DNA of 64,000 nucleotides, taken from NCBI RefSeq assembly GCF_003702705.1, contig NZ_QZMN01000011.1, positions 82,592-146,591 on the forward strand, read 5' to 3'. The notes beneath the pieces were generated by a model. The model did no database searches, was not told the origin of the DNA, and saw only the letters and a program-made list of their open reading frames with translations. Made by a program: the position numbers and the translations under genes. Shown in pieces: positions 38,247 through 44,864 of this stretch. Source of the DNA: Ornithinimicrobium cerasi (GTDB taxonomy: Bacteria; Actinomycetota; Actinomycetes; Actinomycetales; Dermatophilaceae). The first letter of the stretch is position 1. Each line of letters begins with the position of its first letter.

Positions 38247-39590
38247 TCAGCAGTTCGCGACGAGCTGGCCCAGGACCCTCGTCCCGAAGCGGACCGAGTC
38301 CACGGGCACCCGCTCGTCCACCCCGTGGAACATCCCCACGAAGTCGAGGTCGTCCGGCAGCCTCAGCGGCGCGAAACCGTAGCCGGTGATGCCCAGGCGG
38401 GACAGGTGCTTGTTGTCCGTCCCCCCGGAGAGGCAGTAAGGCAGGACGTGCGCCCCGGGGTCCTCCTTGAGCAGGGCGCGGCGCATGGAGTCCACGAGCT
38501 CCCCCGAGGACGGGGCCTCCAGGGCGACGTCCTTGTGCACGATCTCCACCTCGACGTGCTCCCCGGCCAGCTCACCGATGAGGGCCAGCAGCTCCTCCTC
38601 GTGGCCGGGGAGGAAGCGGCAGTCCAGCGACGCGGACGCCGTCTGCGGGATGACGTTGTGCTTGTAGCCGGAGGCCAGCATGGTGAAGTTCGCCGTGTCA
38701 CGCAGCGTTCCCTCGACGAACCGTCGGGCCCCGCCGAGGCGCACGAGGAGGTCCTCGACACTGTCCTCGGACCAGGTCGTGCCGACGATCTGCGCGACGC
38801 CGTCGAAGAGCTCCCGGACCGAGGCGATGTAGGTCCGGGGCCACGGGTGGGCATCGATCCGCGCGATGGCCTCGGCCAGCCGGACGACGGCGTTCTCCGG
38901 GTTGGGAACCGAGCCGTGGCCGGCCCGCCCGCGCGCGTGCAGGCGCAGCCAGGCGATGCCCTTCTCCGCGGTCTGCAGGAGGTAGGCGCGGGTCGGAGCC
39001 CCCGTTGCCGCGTCCGGCAGGGTCACCGAGAAGCCACCTACCTCCGAGATCGCCTCGGTGCATCCCTCGAACCACCCGGGGTGCTGGGTGACGACGTGGC
39101 CGGCGCCCTTGACCCCGCCCGCCTCCTCGTCCGCGAAGAACGCCCAGACGATGTCTCGCGGTGGCTTCTCCCCCGACCGCGCCAGCTGCCGCAGGGTGGC
39201 GAGGAGCATGGCGTCCATGTCCTTCATGTCCACGGCCCCCCGGCCCCAGATCATGCCGTCCTTCTCCTCCGCGGCGAACGGGTCGACCGACCAGTCCTCC
39301 GCCTGGGCCGGCACGACGTCCAGGTGGCCGTGCAGCACCAGGCCGCCGCGGGAGCTGTCACGCCCCTCCGTCCGCACCACCACGCTGGCCCTCCCGGGCT
39401 CGGACTCGGTCAGCTGGGGATCGAGGCCCACCTCCTGCAGCAGGCCCACCACGTACTCCGCCGCCGCCCGTTCCCCGGGGCCGCTGCCGTCGCCGTAGTT
39501 GCTCGTGTCGATCTGGATGAGCTCGCGGCAGATGCGCACCGCCTCGTCCTCGGCGGTGGTGGTCAGCGGGACGGGGCCGGTGTCGGTCAT
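38247..39590 (-). CDS. M20-family metallopeptidase
   Basis: A 447-residue di-zinc peptidase/deacylase of the ArgE/DapE/CPG2 type. Metal ligands are in VLHGHLDVVPA (His, Asp), GRGAVDMKD (Asp) and FFADEEAGG (the catalytic Glu pair), with the last His near YGFAPL. The dimerisation domain is marked by GRAGHGSVPNPENAVVRL. It has no signal peptide, so it is cytosolic. The substrate is not determinable. It follows the giant peroxidase gene with a 78-bp gap containing a hairpin. Confidence 0.92.
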   Translation of the reverse strand: MTDTGPVPLTTTAEDEAVRICRELIQIDTSNYGDGSGPGERAAAEYVVGLLQEVGLDPQLTESEPGRASVVVRTEGRDSSRGGLVLHGHLDVVPAQAEDWSVDPFAAEEKDGMIWGRGAVDMKDMDAMLLATLRQLARSGEKPPRDIVWAFFADEEAGGVKGAGHVVTQHPGWFEGCTEAISEVGGFSVTLPDAATGAPTRAYLLQTAEKGIAWLRLHARGRAGHGSVPNPENAVVRLAEAIARIDAHPWPRTYIASVRELFDGVAQIVGTTWSEDSVEDLLVRLGGARRFVEGTLRDTANFTMLASGYKHNVIPQTASASLDCRFLPGHEEELLALIGELAGEHVEVEIVHKDVALEAPSSGELVDSMRRALLKEDPGAHVLPYCLSGGTDNKHLSRLGITGYGFAPLRLPDDLDFVGMFHGVDERVPVDSVRFGTRVLGQLVANC

Positions 39591-39629
39591 GCGCCCCACA
39601 GTAGGGGGCACGACCCCGGGCGCGACGAA

Positions 39630-39657
39630 GGGCCCGCCCTCGGGAGAGGACGGGCCC
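39630..39657. terminator. Hairpin between peroxidase and M20 genes
   Basis: GGGCCCG (39630-39636) and CGGGCCC (39651-39657) form a 7-bp stem, with further pairing possible in the 14-base loop. It sits just after the peroxidase stop (39669) on the leftward strand, so a terminator is the simplest reading. Confidence 0.55.
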
Positions 39658-39668
39658 CACGTCATACC

Positions 39669-42600
39669 TCAGCCGCCTGGCAGCACCTCCGAGGTACTGC
39701 CCTGGAGCACGCCCTCGTCGTCGACGTAGGTCGCCACGACACGCAGGTCACCCTGCGTCCCCTCAGGCACGGGGATCGTCTGCTCCAGCCCTGCGGACTC
39801 GAGCTCGGCGCCGGTGACCGGGACCCAGGTCCCGCTCTCGTCGAGCTCCTGCAGGGTGAACTGCGTCTCGCCCGCTGCGCCGTCGACGTCCAGACCGGCC
39901 TGCACCTCGTCACCCGACACGGTGGCGGTCAGCGGGGCTGCCGCACCGCACGCGGCACCCGTGGCGAGCACCACACAGCCGTCGGCGAAGTCGACCTGCT
40001 CGATGGCGTGGAGGATGTCCTCGCCCTCGTCCGAGGTCAGACGGTAGTAGCCGTCACCGAGGTCCTCGATGGTCACGTCCGCCTGGTTCGCCAGGTACTC
40101 GGCCGTGTCGACGGCACCGCCGGCACCCGGGTCGACCGCGATCTCGCGCACGATCTCGAAGTCACCGGGGTTCATCGTCCCGGCGAAGATCGCTGCCCGC
40201 ACCTGGGTCGCCGAGTTGTAGCGGGCACCCGTGGGCACGTGGAGCAGCTGCACCCGCAGGTAAGCGTCGCCGTCGATGAAGTCGTCCCCATCACGACCCT
40301 CGATCAGGTCGCTTCCGGAACCACCCATCAGCAGGTTGCCGTCGACCGGGTCGCCGGCCGCGTTCCCGCTCATGAACCGTGCCGCGTAGTCGTCGTGGCC
40401 CGCCGGCTGCAGGAGCTCCCGCAGTCCGTCGACCAGGTCCAGGCCCTCCTCGGTCAGCCAGTTGACCTCGGTGCCCGTGAAGGCGTCCGGGACGAAGCCG
40501 AGACCGCGGAGCACGTCGTTGCCGCTGCCGCCGGAGAGAGACTCCGTCTGCAGGTAGCGATCGCGGATCGCGGTGACGTCCGGGGGCTGCAGGTTGAAGT
40601 TCATGTCTGCATCGACCCCGGCGGTCGTCCCGTAGAACGTGACGTGGTCGAACCCGAACATCCCGTGGAAGCGGTCCGTGCCGCCGGGGCCGCCGACGAG
40701 GATGTCGTCGCCGCCCTCGGCGTCCATGTCGTCCGAGCCGGCACCGCCGATGAGGACGTCGTCACCGCCGATCGTGTCGTTCTGGAACTGCTGCGAGTTG
40801 TCACCGATCAGCAGGTCGGACGCCGCGAGGCCCTCCAGCCAGTCGTCCCCCTCGTTGCCGAACGGGGTCTCGCGACCCGGTCCGCCGACGAAGATGTCGT
40901 TGCCGGTGCCGAGGAAGCCGGTCGCCCCGTCGGAGTTGTCGAGCGGCTTGCTGACGAAGTCGTTGCCCGCTCCGGCGAGGAGCAGGTCGATCCCCGGCCC
41001 TCCGTCGATCGCGTCGTTGCCGTCACCGCCCTTGATGTTGTCGTCGCCGAAGGTGTCGGTGAGGATGTCGTCACCGGGCCCACCGAGGATGGAGTCGTTG
41101 CCCGACCCGCCCTCGATGCGGTCGTTGCCTCCGTAGCCGAAGAGCGAGTCGTCACCCTGCCCACCCTGAATGCGGTCCGGGAGCGTCCGGTTGCCGTGGA
41201 TGGCGATGTGCTCGTCGCCGTTCCAGCGCCAGGTCCCGTCGGGGAGCTGGGACAGCTGGGCAGGCAACGGGACAGGAAGGTTCTCCAGGTCGATGCTCGG
41301 GTCGGTGATCGTGAAGATGGACGCCGGAAGCAGTGAGGCGTCCGTGTTCCGTTGGATCAGCGAGGAGAACGAGTTCGCCTCCAGTGCCGCGAAGAGCTGG
41401 TTGCCCTGGTTGCGGAACAGGTAGTAGAACCGGTCGCCGAACTGCAGGTCCTCCAGCTGGGTCTCGAAGACGTAGTTGAACGTCGCTCCGAGCATCCCGC
41501 CGAACGGGTCGAGGGCCTCGGCGAGTCCGCCGACCCAGAAGTCGACCTCCTCCAGACCGGTGACCGTCTGACCGTCAACGTTGGCCCATGCACCGGTGGA
41601 CTGCAGGAACGCGATCCGGTCAGCGGGCGCCTGCGGGGCCGGGAAGAGCGCCTCGACGGCCTGCTCGAGGCCCAGGGTCACAGCGACCTCGCCACCGAGG
41701 ATGACGACCCGGCCCGGGTTCAGCCGCAGGATCTCCGCAGCCGTGGCTGCCGGAAGAGCGGTACCGGTGCCGGGCACCAGCAGGAGAGGCGACCCGGTGG
41801 GCGCAGCGGAGAGCGCGTCCGGATAGTCGAGGCCGGTTGCCAGGTAGACGGTTCCGCCGGAGTTGTCGGCGAAGGTGTCCTGGCTGATCGCCACCGAGGT
41901 GGCGTACCGGTTCGCTCCGGAGATGCGCTCGACGGTGCCGTAGGCTCCCAGCGCCGTGACCACGTCGTCGCTGACCGCGAGAGGACCACCGAGCACCTTG
42001 ATGTCGGTGACGTTCAGACGGTCCAGCTCGGCGGCGGTCACCGCCGGCAACCCCTGGTTGACCAGGAGCAGGGGCGAACCGTTGAAGGCGGCCGCTGCTC
42101 CGCCGGACAGGGCGTCCGGGAAGTTGAGCCCGGAGGCCACGTAGGCCGTGGCCGCCCCGCCCTCGAAGGCGCGCTGGCTGACCCGTACCGCGGTCTCGAA
42201 CCGGTTGACCCCGGAGACCCGGGTGACAGTGCCAGTCGTGGAGTAGGTGCCGAGCGAGTTCAGCACCTGCTCGGTCACCACGCTGGGTCCGCCCAGCACG
42301 ACGATCTCCGAGGGCTGCAGCCTCTCCAGCTCAAGTGCGGTGGCCGCGGGGATCGCGTTGGTGTCCACGAGCAACAACGGGCCACCGTCAGCGGCGGCGG
42401 CCGGTCCACCGGCGAGGGCGTCGGGGAAGTTGCGGCCGTTGGCCACGTAGACCACCGGCGCCGCGCCGGCGAAGGTCGCACGGCTCAGGGCAGCCGCCGT
42501 CGCGAAGCGGTTGGCTCCCGAGATCCGCTCCACGAGGTCCGTGGTGGAGGTGCCCAGGACGAGCGCCTCGGCCGCGGCGCGCTTGCCGACAAGGGTGTTC

Positions 42601-44864
42601 TCGGCGACGACTGAGGGGTGCGAGCCGTAGGCGGCGATGAAGTTGATCAGGGACGCCTGGCTGTCACCCCGTCCGAAGTTGCTCCCGTTGCGCAGGGCGG
42701 AGCCGAAGTCCTGCCAGCTCGAGTACGGCTCGAGGTTGGGGTTGCCGGACTCCTCGTAGAAGACGCGGCGCGCCTCCTGCAGCGGAGGGACACCGACGTC
42801 GCGTCCCCGCATGATGTTGATCGACGCAAGGTCGAGCGGCAGCCCCAGCAGGCTGTTGCGCAGTGTGCTGGTGACCAGCTCGTCCGTCTGGTTGGCGGGC
42901 TGCTGGGTCGTGCCGTTGACGAGGGCGCCGGCAGCCTCCTCCGAGGTCAGCCGGTCGGCTGCCGCGCAGGTGTTGGCCGCCGTCGGCTCCACCCGGCAGT
43001 GGAAGGCGACCGGGTTGAGGAAGCCGTCGAGCAGCGACGTCGAGGTGGTGCCGAATCCCTGCCGCTGGAGGTCCTGGTTGAGCATGGAGTGCCCGAAGCG
43101 GTAGACGACATGGGCGAACTCGGCCTTGATGGACGGGTCGATGGTCTCGTCGTAGCTGTTCTCGTTGAAGGTGATGACGTCGATCGCAGGCTGGATCGTG
43201 CGCGCGAACTCCTCGAACACGAGGTGCTGGTACTGCATCTCGTTGGCGAACCGAGCAGCCTGGAAGACACGCTCGTTGAACGACCAGTCGTCCGCCTCGT
43301 CCTGGTTCTGGTAGGCGGCGAGCAGCTCCTCGTTGCCGGGCTCGTTGAGGACGGTGTTCACGTGGTCGACGAGCCGGTTGTGCTCTGCGTGGAAGACGTG
43401 GTGCACGGCCGTCAGGCCGATGTTCTCGTTGCCACGACCGTCACCGGTGATGAAGTGCTCGCCGAGCAGGACGTTGTCGTAGCCGGCGAGCTCGTTGGGG
43501 ACCGCGCCGTGCGCGATGTCGTCCAGGAAGGACTGGTTCAGGCGCTCGGCGTTGACCGTCGAGATGGGGGCGGAGGGGTTTCCCTCGGCCACTCCACCCA
43601 CGTTCACGAGCTGGGGGAACCCGTTGGCGCCGGGGACGAAGTTGCCGTAGAGGTCCACGACGACGTTGGGGACCGACAGCACGTCTGCGTCACGGAGGGC
43701 GATGCCGAGGACGGACGCTGCCTGCGCCTTGACGTTGTTCCAGGTGGCCAGACCGCCGCTCGGGCTGTCGAGCAGCCGTCCCGTGGCCTGGGGCCGTCCG
43801 CCGACGAGCTCGTACTCCCTCAGGAAGACCTGGTGGGCGGGGTGCGAGGTGTAGGTCTGGTTCTGGTCCACGAAGGGCGTGGTGCGGTTCTCGTGCTCGC
43901 GCACGTCGTCACCGTTGCCCAGGATGCCGTCCGGGCCGGGCTGGTTGGTGGCCCGATCGAGCATCATGAATCGACGGTCCGGGGGGGTCACGTTGTAGAG
44001 CGGGTCGTCCTGGGCGAGCGGCACGACGATGGTGCCGCTCCCACCCTTGTTGACGAGGTCCAGCCCGTGGTCGAAGAACTGCCCGAACAGCACGAACCAC
44101 AGGTTGACGGGGGCCGAGAGGCCCTCATCAGGCATGACGTTGGGGATGAACACCTCGCCGGTCACCGGGTCGGTCGTCGAACCCTCGGTGTTGGCGGCGG
44201 CGTCCACAGCAGCCGGGTTGGCCGTGGAGGAGTCCACGATGAGGTTGCTGATGGTGCGGGGGTCGGAGTCGTAGACGAAACCGCTGGTCTGCTCGTAGCA
44301 GGTGGAGGCGGGGTCGTCGCAGACGGAGGTCGCCCCGGGCGGGTTAGGCGGACCACCGGCGACCGGGTCGCCATCACGCCAGTGGATGGGCAGCAGTCGC
44401 GGCATCAGCCGGTTCGAGGAACCGAACTCGGTCTGGCCGTTGACGAGGTTGTTGAACGACCCGTCCACGGTCCGCAGCCCGTGCGGGAGCATGGGGTCCC
44501 GCACGCACTTGCCACTCGTGTCGTCGGAGGTCGCGCAGACCAGGGAGTAGGACGTGTCCCCGGTGTTGATCGCGTGGGCGTGGGCCTCGGAGATCTGGAT
44601 CTGGTCCAGGATGAAGTCGAGGTCGCTGCCGATGAGGCGGAACGTCGGAACCGTCTCCGTCACTGCGGCGGAGGGCGCGACCAGCGAGGTCACGGCGAGG
44701 GGCGCGACGACCAGGGTCGAGGCGCTCAGGAAGCCCACGGCAGTTCGCCACCTTGATCTGAGCAGATGCACCAGCAACGCCACCCCGCCTACTGCCACGA
44801 GCACGACAGACACAACAAGCCAGACACTGGATCCCACGACGCGCTTCCCCTCGATCTGTTCCAC
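39669..44864 (-). CDS. Giant heme peroxidase with inserted CWB2 repeats and RTX-like repeats
   Basis: A 1731-residue surface or secreted protein. Residues of about 12-66 hold two hydrophobic segments serving as a membrane anchor or signal. An animal-type heme peroxidase domain follows, with distal H266 in GQFFDHGLD and proximal H592 in RFGHSML, then INIMRGRDVGVPP. Residues of about 777-1071 are three cell-wall-binding type 2 repeats (ERISGANRFATA, ANGRNFPDALAGG, IVVLGGPSVV). The peroxidase fold then resumes (STGAWANVDG, VDFWVGGLAE). RTX-type Ca repeats (GGNDRIEGGSGND) cover about 1235-1395, with one more near 1510. The tail is a beta domain. The GTG start is at 44864. Confidence 0.92.
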   Translation of the reverse strand: MEQIEGKRVVGSSVWLVVSVVLVAVGGVALLVHLLRSRWRTAVGFLSASTLVVAPLAVTSLVAPSAAVTETVPTFRLIGSDLDFILDQIQISEAHAHAINTGDTSYSLVCATSDDTSGKCVRDPMLPHGLRTVDGSFNNLVNGQTEFGSSNRLMPRLLPIHWRDGDPVAGGPPNPPGATSVCDDPASTCYEQTSGFVYDSDPRTISNLIVDSSTANPAAVDAAANTEGSTTDPVTGEVFIPNVMPDEGLSAPVNLWFVLFGQFFDHGLDLVNKGGSGTIVVPLAQDDPLYNVTPPDRRFMMLDRATNQPGPDGILGNGDDVREHENRTTPFVDQNQTYTSHPAHQVFLREYELVGGRPQATGRLLDSPSGGLATWNNVKAQAASVLGIALRDADVLSVPNVVVDLYGNFVPGANGFPQLVNVGGVAEGNPSAPISTVNAERLNQSFLDDIAHGAVPNELAGYDNVLLGEHFITGDGRGNENIGLTAVHHVFHAEHNRLVDHVNTVLNEPGNEELLAAYQNQDEADDWSFNERVFQAARFANEMQYQHLVFEEFARTIQPAIDVITFNENSYDETIDPSIKAEFAHVVYRFGHSMLNQDLQRQGFGTTSTSLLDGFLNPVAFHCRVEPTAANTCAAADRLTSEEAAGALVNGTTQQPANQTDELVTSTLRNSLLGLPLDLASINIMRGRDVGVPPLQEARRVFYEESGNPNLEPYSSWQDFGSALRNGSNFGRGDSQASLINFIAAYGSHPSVVAENTLVGKRAAAEALVLGTSTTDLVERISGANRFATAAALSRATFAGAAPVVYVANGRNFPDALAGGPAAAADGGPLLLVDTNAIPAATALELERLQPSEIVVLGGPSVVTEQVLNSLGTYSTTGTVTRVSGVNRFETAVRVSQRAFEGGAATAYVASGLNFPDALSGGAAAAFNGSPLLLVNQGLPAVTAAELDRLNVTDIKVLGGPLAVSDDVVTALGAYGTVERISGANRYATSVAISQDTFADNSGGTVYLATGLDYPDALSAAPTGSPLLLVPGTGTALPAATAAEILRLNPGRVVILGGEVAVTLGLEQAVEALFPAPQAPADRIAFLQSTGAWANVDGQTVTGLEEVDFWVGGLAEALDPFGGMLGATFNYVFETQLEDLQFGDRFYYLFRNQGNQLFAALEANSFSSLIQRNTDASLLPASIFTITDPSIDLENLPVPLPAQLSQLPDGTWRWNGDEHIAIHGNRTLPDRIQGGQGDDSLFGYGGNDRIEGGSGNDSILGGPGDDILTDTFGDDNIKGGDGNDAIDGGPGIDLLLAGAGNDFVSKPLDNSDGATGFLGTGNDIFVGGPGRETPFGNEGDDWLEGLAASDLLIGDNSQQFQNDTIGGDDVLIGGAGSDDMDAEGGDDILVGGPGGTDRFHGMFGFDHVTFYGTTAGVDADMNFNLQPPDVTAIRDRYLQTESLSGGSGNDVLRGLGFVPDAFTGTEVNWLTEEGLDLVDGLRELLQPAGHDDYAARFMSGNAAGDPVDGNLLMGGSGSDLIEGRDGDDFIDGDAYLRVQLLHVPTGARYNSATQVRAAIFAGTMNPGDFEIVREIAVDPGAGGAVDTAEYLANQADVTIEDLGDGYYRLTSDEGEDILHAIEQVDFADGCVVLATGAACGAAAPLTATVSGDEVQAGLDVDGAAGETQFTLQELDESGTWVPVTGAELESAGLEQTIPVPEGTQGDLRVVATYVDDEGVLQGSTSEVLPGG

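What the first reader, a model, noticed from the sequence alone, without database searches (positions are those of the whole stretch)
39669..44864. Cell-wall-binding repeats inserted inside a heme peroxidase domain
The animal-type peroxidase fold is split: distal His (266), proximal His (592) and the RGRD segment come first, then three CWB2 repeats (about 777-1071), then the remaining peroxidase elements (STGAWAN, VDFWVGGLAE), and only afterwards RTX-like repeats. CWB2 arrays usually sit at a protein end. An insertion in the catalytic domain would anchor the enzyme to the wall around its active-site shell and may couple wall binding or calcium to activity.
Basis: partly seen in the sequence, partly recalled or inferred. 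Interest (0 to 1): 0.72.

Follow-up and report, generated by a model that had tools for sequence, protein, structure and literature searches.

The report
Wall anchor nested inside bacterial peroxidase
A bacterium makes a large, probably secreted oxidising enzyme whose cell-wall anchor is built into a loop of the enzyme itself rather than at its end; relatives share this, and other genes in these genomes hint, without proof, at manganese oxidation on the cell surface.

Summary
The minus-strand gene at 39669-44864 (1731 aa) encodes a probably secreted long peroxicin (RTX-type animal-peroxidase homologue; family of MopA and PepA). Three CWB2 repeats (778-1070) sit inside the peroxidase domain, between neighbouring helices (761-771, 1079-1087). 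The stretch after them is peroxidase: 79-82% identical to two uninserted Nocardioides homologues and colinear with solved peroxidases; AlphaFold models with and without insert agree. I found 16 such proteins in six actinobacterial genera, and 3 relatives in three genera with a CWB2 triple in another loop, before the distal histidine. Haem motifs are kept, and dN/dS is below 0.5 in each part in the six pairs tested. The genome's other ten CWB2 triples lie at protein ends. Best reading: a wall-tethered extracellular haem peroxidase. Mn(II) or another metal as substrate is only a lead: MnxG-like oxidase genes co-occur with long peroxicins (4 of 5 such genomes among 396), and in one genome an MnxG-like protein with its own CWB2 triple lies beside a CWB2-inserted peroxidase; yet most insert-bearing genomes examined lack MnxG-like genes. 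Coupling of wall binding to catalysis is untested. New variant of a known kind.

The parts
39669..44864 (-). whole gene: RTX-type haem peroxidase (long peroxicin) with nested CWB2 triple, 1731 aa
44676..44825 (-). N-terminus: hydrophobic segments at res 14-32 and 45-63; membrane segment plus signal-peptide-like segment
   Evidence: hydropathy scan; the signal reading is inference
42552..44648 (-). peroxidase domain, first part (res 73-771)
44064..44084 (-). distal Asp265/His266 (GQFFDHG)
43905..43937 (-). PERCAL calcium motif GPDGILGNGDD (res 310-320)
   Evidence: motif definition from PMC3396595 (passages)
43080..43103 (-). proximal His592 (YRFGHSML)
42798..42821 (-). INIMRGRD (res 682-689)
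42261..42533 (-). CWB2 repeat 1 (res 778-868)
41958..42227 (-). CWB2 repeat 2 (res 880-969)
41655..41933 (-). CWB2 repeat 3 (res 978-1070)
41277..41630 (-). peroxidase domain, second part (res 1079-1196)
40605..41198 (-). RTX-type calcium-binding repeats (approx. res 1223-1420)
38247..39665 (-). M20-family metallo-hydrolase ORF that ends the 3-nt gap downstream on the same strand; no functional link shown

Best explanation
A haem peroxidase of the long-peroxicin (MopA/PepA) family, held on the actinobacterial cell wall by a CWB2 triple nested in a loop of the catalytic domain. Steps: (1) export through the Sec pathway (inferred from the N-terminus); (2) the two peroxidase parts fold into one haem domain around the insert (strongly supported by sequence and models); (3) the CWB2 triple binds a wall glycopolymer non-covalently, the insert acting as a tether (inferred from the Clostridioides precedent); (4) the RTX tail and PERCAL motif bind calcium outside the cell (inferred); (5) the anchored enzyme oxidises an extracellular substrate, perhaps Mn(II) or another metal or phenolic donor (inferred from family and genome context, about 0.4 for Mn(II)). 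CWB2 triples occupy two different loops in two separate peroxidase lineages.
For: Colinear Pfam and PDB matches on both sides. Post-insert part 79% and 82% identical to two uninserted homologues. AF2 of residues 73-1216: pLDDT 89.6, pTM 0.81, matching peroxidases and the CWB2 proteins Cwp6, Cwp8 and SlpH. Uninserted control L089: pTM 0.89, same flanking helices, fuller match to 8s6c (TMt 0.80 over 796 columns against 0.67 over 627). C-loop triple in 16 distinct proteins, N-loop triple in 3. Distal motifs in 18 of 18 inserted proteins that are not cut off before them, proximal-His and GG[LM]AE motifs in 19 of 19. dN/dS under 0.5 in each of three parts in six pairs. MnxG-like oxidase in the own genome (PDB MnxG, E 5.2e-156); MnxG-like genes in 5 of 396 order genomes, 4 of them among the 20 with long peroxicins. 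MopA and MnxG as Mn(II) oxidases: PMC6247904 and PMC9765421 (passages).
Against: No experiment. The substrate cannot be told from sequence (PMC3396595 says so, passages). Of the 10 Ornithinimicrobium genomes with the C-loop insert, 7 gave no MnxG-like hit, nor did the Cellulosimicrobium, Actinomyces, Microbacterium and Agromyces genomes; G051 was not examined. The window gene and the MnxG-like gene of its genome are on different contigs. The Aurantimonas genome gave no MnxG-like hit. CWB2 parts evolve faster than the first peroxidase part in 5 of 6 pairs. The ligand of actinobacterial CWB2 was not looked for. No coordinates or PAE were seen, so domain orientation and distance to haem are unknown.
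Confidence: 0.65

Rival explanations
1. Regulatory coupling: binding of wall polymer by the nested CWB2 module (or calcium by the RTX tail) changes the haem pocket and switches activity.
For: In all 19 inserted proteins found the triple splits the catalytic domain; none of the sampled long peroxicins had it at an end, as far as my CWB2 profile, built from the window's three repeats only, can see. The second insertion loop lies just before the distal-His helix.
Against: The C-loop region takes unrelated inserts elsewhere: PERCAL motifs, and about 190 aa of non-CWB2 sequence in L190. Uninserted proteins lie within both inserted groups. This points to tolerance rather than a tuned switch.
Confidence: 0.12
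2. The CWB2 triple no longer binds wall and is only a spacer or lid.
For: CWB2 parts evolve faster than the first peroxidase part in 5 of 6 pairs; my strict PILL-type pattern found all three motifs in only 4 of 17 modules.
Against: CWB2 dN/dS 0.07-0.48, one dS saturated. GGPLLL, GSPLLL, GSPLLL in the window's repeats. Three repeats in all 19 inserted proteins.
Confidence: 0.12
3. The insertion destroyed the enzyme and the protein is now a structural wall protein.
For: An insertion of about 295 aa in an enzyme domain is a large change.
Against: Haem and catalytic motifs kept; low dN/dS in both peroxidase parts; confident model.
Confidence: 0.06
4. Assembly artefact, or the post-repeat stretch is not peroxidase.
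For: None found.
Against: Same architecture in 16 proteins from many genomes; colinear homology on both sides.
Confidence: 0.01

Closest known systems
MopA / PepA-type long bacterial peroxicins (animal haem peroxidase + PERCAL + hemolysin-type calcium repeats)
   Same: Peroxidase domain with the same motifs, 42-59% identity (best segment) to the uninserted relatives listed; PERCAL motif at 310-320; C-terminal RTX repeats. Aurantimonas manganoxydans SI85-9A1 (L159) is among the relatives.
   Different: CWB2 triple nested in the domain; one peroxidase domain where many proteobacterial ones have two; extra N-terminal hydrophobic segment; Mn(II) oxidation untested.
Clostridioides difficile CWB2 surface proteins (Cwp2, Cwp66, Cwp6, Cwp8, SlpA)
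   Same: Three tandem CWB2 repeats with PILL-type motifs; the model matches Cwp6, Cwp8 and SlpH.
   Different: There the triple is N- or C-terminal (PMC4973711, passages); here it is inside a catalytic domain.
MnxG-type multicopper Mn(II) oxidases
   Same: A homologue lies in the same genome; in G015 (Pfam) and G001 (by eye in the tail printed) the homologue ends in a CWB2 triple; possible functional partner.
   Different: Unrelated fold; CWB2 terminal; NCBIfam MnxG scores of 313 (G015) and 267 bits (own genome) are far below the cut-off of 3100.

Membership tests
Long peroxicin (peroxidase-cyclooxygenase superfamily) | An_peroxidase over the Pfam cut-off | tested here: met
   195.2 bits against 25
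Long peroxicin (peroxidase-cyclooxygenase superfamily) | distal Asp/His, R-x-x-E, proximal His, conserved Asn | tested here: met
   D265/H266, R477/E480, H592, N683. R-x-x-E and the His-Asn pair are named in PMC4420034 (passages); the mapping to MPO/LPO residues is partly recalled
Long peroxicin (peroxidase-cyclooxygenase superfamily) | PERCAL and hemolysin-type calcium repeats | tested here: met
   GPDGILGNGDD fits G-x-D-G-x-x-[GN]-[TN]-x-D-D; HemolysinCabind. PERCAL by this strict pattern was found in only 3 of the 11 C-loop proteins
MopA Mn(II) oxidase | oxidises Mn(II) | not testable with these tools
   needs assay
MopA Mn(II) oxidase | lies in one sequence clade with a tested MopA | tested here: inconclusive
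   The first peroxidase domain of the Aurantimonas protein falls in another branch; its second domain and other tested MopA proteins were not in the tree
CWB2 wall-anchored proteins | three tandem CWB2 repeats | tested here: met
CWB2 wall-anchored proteins | PILL-type motif in each repeat | tested here: met
   GGPLLL, GSPLLL, GSPLLL in the window protein; the fourth position is L where the published pattern has I/V. In the other 16 modules scanned the pattern found one to three
CWB2 wall-anchored proteins | binds a wall anionic polymer | not testable with these tools
   needs binding assay

The most novel reading that the evidence does not exclude
Some Actinomycetia (Ornithinimicrobium above all) own a wall-tethered Mn(II)-oxidising system in which MopA-type peroxidases carry the anchor inside the catalytic domain and MnxG-type multicopper oxidases carry it at the C-terminus, so that Mn oxide forms on the wall. 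A CWB2 triple entered two different loops of the peroxidase, possibly by hopping from one loop to the other between paralogues, since the best tree found holds all 19 inserted modules together (not rejected, not shown).
Probability: 0.35. Interest if true: 0.75.

Novelty: new variant of a known kind. Interest (0 to 1): 0.6.

Why it matters
It is a clear natural case of a wall-binding module nested in an enzyme domain, at two sites, with inserted and uninserted relatives that allow a clean test of whether a nested anchor changes catalysis. It also gives a concrete lead to wall-bound Mn(II) oxidation in Gram-positive bacteria and a natural template for placing wall anchors in internal loops.

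Tried and rejected
Rejected: artefact or false peroxidase tail. Conserved gene neighbourhood of the window gene: of 14 neighbouring window ORFs searched in loci L061-L089, only one weak SDR hit of 29% identity was found. Strict monophyly of the 16 C-loop peroxidases: rejected, p-AU 0.0046, because two uninserted Nocardioides proteins lie within; one gain and one loss, two gains, or recombination cannot be told apart. Origin of the modules: 16 C-loop modules were one group at support 83 (not starred) in a first tree, not so in the free tree with two more rows; grouping of the 16 (p 0.81) and of all 19 (p 0.93) was not rejected and had higher likelihood than the free quick search, so the CWB2 trees are poorly resolved. 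I first took the N-loop insert to be a single case; re-checking showed two more, and the report was mended. alone does not show N-loop inserts, because its query starts behind that loop. The whole-genome trees are 'quick' trees with SH-aLRT support only.

Literature: 'cell wall binding repeat' + 'heme peroxidase' 0 papers; 'cell wall-binding repeat-containing protein' + 'peroxidase' 0; 'CWB2' + 'peroxidase' + 'cell wall' 13, seen as listing and abstract starts only, none of whose titles is about such a protein; 'Ornithinimicrobium' + 'manganese oxid' 0. The held library lacks most subscription papers. Five papers were seen as passages only: PMC6247904, PMC3396595, PMC4973711, PMC4420034, PMC9765421.

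Full report
What is there. The gene lies on the minus strand at 39669-44864 and encodes 1731 aa from a GTG start. Pfam finds animal haem peroxidase, three CWB2 repeats and hemolysin-type calcium repeats. The window is G000:C7:82592-146591 of a 3.83-Mb genome.

Is the domain really split? Yes. The stretch after the repeats matches the C-terminal part of a solved peroxidase colinearly (8s6c residues 423-511, i-Evalue 9.6e-5; several lactoperoxidases at 488-569), and Pfam positions 446-522 at E 5.1e-10. It is identical at 95 of 121 and 100 of 122 residues to two uninserted Nocardioides proteins, L089 and L088. AlphaFold on 72 aligned sequences gave pLDDT 89.6 and pTM 0.81 for residues 73-1216; Foldseek matches peroxidases and CWB2 proteins. 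The uninserted control L089, 51 sequences, gave pTM 0.89 and a fuller match to 8s6c (TMt 0.80, 796 columns, against 0.67, 627 columns), as expected if the local alignment of the inserted model stops at the insert; aligned ranges were not shown. The flanking helices correspond: 686-698 and 1011-1015 in the window model (add 72 for protein numbering), 706-718 and 727-731 in the control. No coordinates or PAE were available, so the distance to the haem was not measured.

Where exactly. The insert replaces a short linker between KRAAAEALVLG (761-771) and APADRIAFL (1079-1087). The empty site reads, for example, KRAAADLLVNGGAGAPGDREAFM in L089. In L061 and L153 this same linker holds a PERCAL calcium motif; in several Pseudomonas domains and in L143 and L144 a PERCAL motif lies elsewhere in the stretch between AAYG and GGLAE. 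PERCAL inserts in this domain are published (PMC3396595, passages). The distant homologue L190 has about 190 aa of other sequence there. So this is a permissive region.

How common. Among 98 relatives I took 21 long peroxicins: 11 with the C-loop CWB2 triple, 1 with a triple in another loop, 9 without. My CWB2 profile was built from the window's three repeats, so distant repeats could be missed. Records seen twice removed, there are 16 distinct C-loop proteins: 10 from Ornithinimicrobium, 1 from G051 (another genus of the family), and Cellulosimicrobium composti, Actinomyces minihominis, Microbacterium gallinarum and Agromyces cavernae (two). Of 32 genomes of the genus, 11 have a long peroxicin and 10 of these the C-loop triple. 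Judged by the gap between Pfam matches, the C-loop triple occurs in 2 of 20 long-peroxicin genomes of the order draw, and in the class and phylum draws only in the window's own genome.

A second insertion site. Three proteins carry a CWB2 triple before the distal His and none at the C-loop: L065 in G015 (residues 254-556), L273 in G323 (252-542) and L274 in G272 (262-551, stop-to-stop numbering for the last two). Peroxidase sequence lies on both sides of each triple, between NPAA... and IPDIATDEGLSA-like motifs. They come from three genera and two family codes, f1 and f6. I found the last two only on re-checking 48 loci; loci of the class and phylum draws were mostly not fetched, so more may exist. 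Two Pseudomonas proteins, L152 and L158, have an Ala-rich stretch in the same loop (229 and 232 residues, against 38-102 in the others matched).

History. In the peroxidase tree the 16 C-loop proteins form one group with the two uninserted Nocardioides proteins inside (99*); strict monophyly is rejected (p 0.0046). The three N-loop proteins form a second, distant group (100*) with the uninserted Citricoccus protein L096 inside. So the two sites belong to two lineages, each with an uninserted member. The trees of the CWB2 modules are poorly resolved: the 16 C-loop modules grouped at support 83 in one tree and not in the free tree with two more rows; holding the 16, or all 19, together is not rejected and gives a higher likelihood (p 0.81 and 0.93). 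A starred branch separates the Microbacterium module from 8 of 10 other CWB2 triples of its genome. One shared source of all modules is therefore possible, not shown.

Is the placement unusual? The genome has 33 CWB2 repeats in 11 triples. Of the other ten proteins, five have the triple at the C-terminus, four near the N-terminus (in L239 the ORF start is probably called too early: a signal-like stretch lies just before the repeats) and one is almost only CWB2. Pfam domains beside it include subtilase, kelch, 5'-nucleotidase, polysaccharide deacetylase, amidase and RCC1 repeats; none was seen to be split by the triple, though one of two RCC1-profile stretches of L239 was not located.

Is it functional? 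Proximal-His and GG[LM]AE motifs are present in 19 of 19 inserted proteins, the two distal motifs in 18 of 18 that are not cut off before them. My strict RGRD pattern fitted 13 of 17 and, as RARD, both; the Asn of that motif is invariant in alignment A1 of 11 inserted proteins. dN/dS over six pairs is 0.05-0.38 (first part), 0.07-0.48 (CWB2, one dS saturated) and 0.05-0.28 (second part); CWB2 is faster than the first part in 5 of 6.

What it may do. The family includes MopA, an Mn(II) oxidase that needs haem, NAD+ and calcium (PMC6247904, passages), and PepA; activity cannot be told from sequence (PMC3396595). Pseudomonas putida GB-1 has MnxG, McoA and MopA, and P. resinovorans has homologues (PMC9765421, passages). 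The window's genome has a giant multicopper oxidase whose best solved relative is MnxG (E 5.2e-156; NCBIfam MnxG 267 bits, below the 3100 cut-off). MnxG-like genes occur in 5 of 396 order genomes; 4 of the 5 are among the 20 with long peroxicins (hypergeometric P 2.3e-5, kinship not corrected, at most two candidates scored per genome; the fifth genome is 62% complete). Among 59 relatives it is 4 of 4 (13 of 59 have long peroxicins; P 0.0016). In G015 the order is response regulator, histidine kinase, L065 peroxidase, YtkA-like protein, MnxG-like protein with C-terminal CWB2 triple and, further on, a heavy-metal P-type ATPase. Against this, 7 of 10 C-loop Ornithinimicrobium genomes and the four other named insert-bearing genomes searched have no MnxG-like hit. 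I hold Mn(II) oxidation at about 0.4 for the window protein.

Verdict. Observation confirmed; the nesting is real, shared and under selection. Anchoring is likely, catalytic coupling unproven, the substrate a lead. I file it as a new variant of the long peroxicins.

Noticed in passing
L218:1086-8561 (G015) and L251:4176-11564 (G001): Giant MnxG-like multicopper oxidases that end in a CWB2 triple (Pfam in G015, by eye in G001), with a heavy-metal P-type ATPase near both and a YtkA-like gene beside the G015 one.
   Followed up: partly
L250:4051-9690 (G000:C51): The window's own genome has an MnxG-like multicopper oxidase of 1879 aa; no CWB2 match on that contig.
   Followed up: partly
window 44676-44825 (-) and N-termini of L065, L069, L073, L075-L080: Inserted Ornithinimicrobium peroxidases have an extra hydrophobic segment before the signal-like one (in L065 and L076 only the first passed my threshold); eight of nine uninserted proteins of that set show one segment and L062 none.
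   Followed up: partly
L087: Agromyces cavernae has two neighbouring peroxidase genes, both with the CWB2 triple at the C-loop.
   Followed up: no
L152, L158 (Pseudomonas): Ala-rich stretch in the loop before the distal His, the loop being 229-232 aa long.
   Followed up: no
L190 (G796): Long peroxicin with non-CWB2 sequence inserted in the C-loop region and another insert upstream.
   Followed up: no
window 38247-39665 (-): An M20-family hydrolase ORF starts 3 nt after the peroxidase stop on the same strand; no match to it was found in the loci around the other peroxidases searched.
   Followed up: partly
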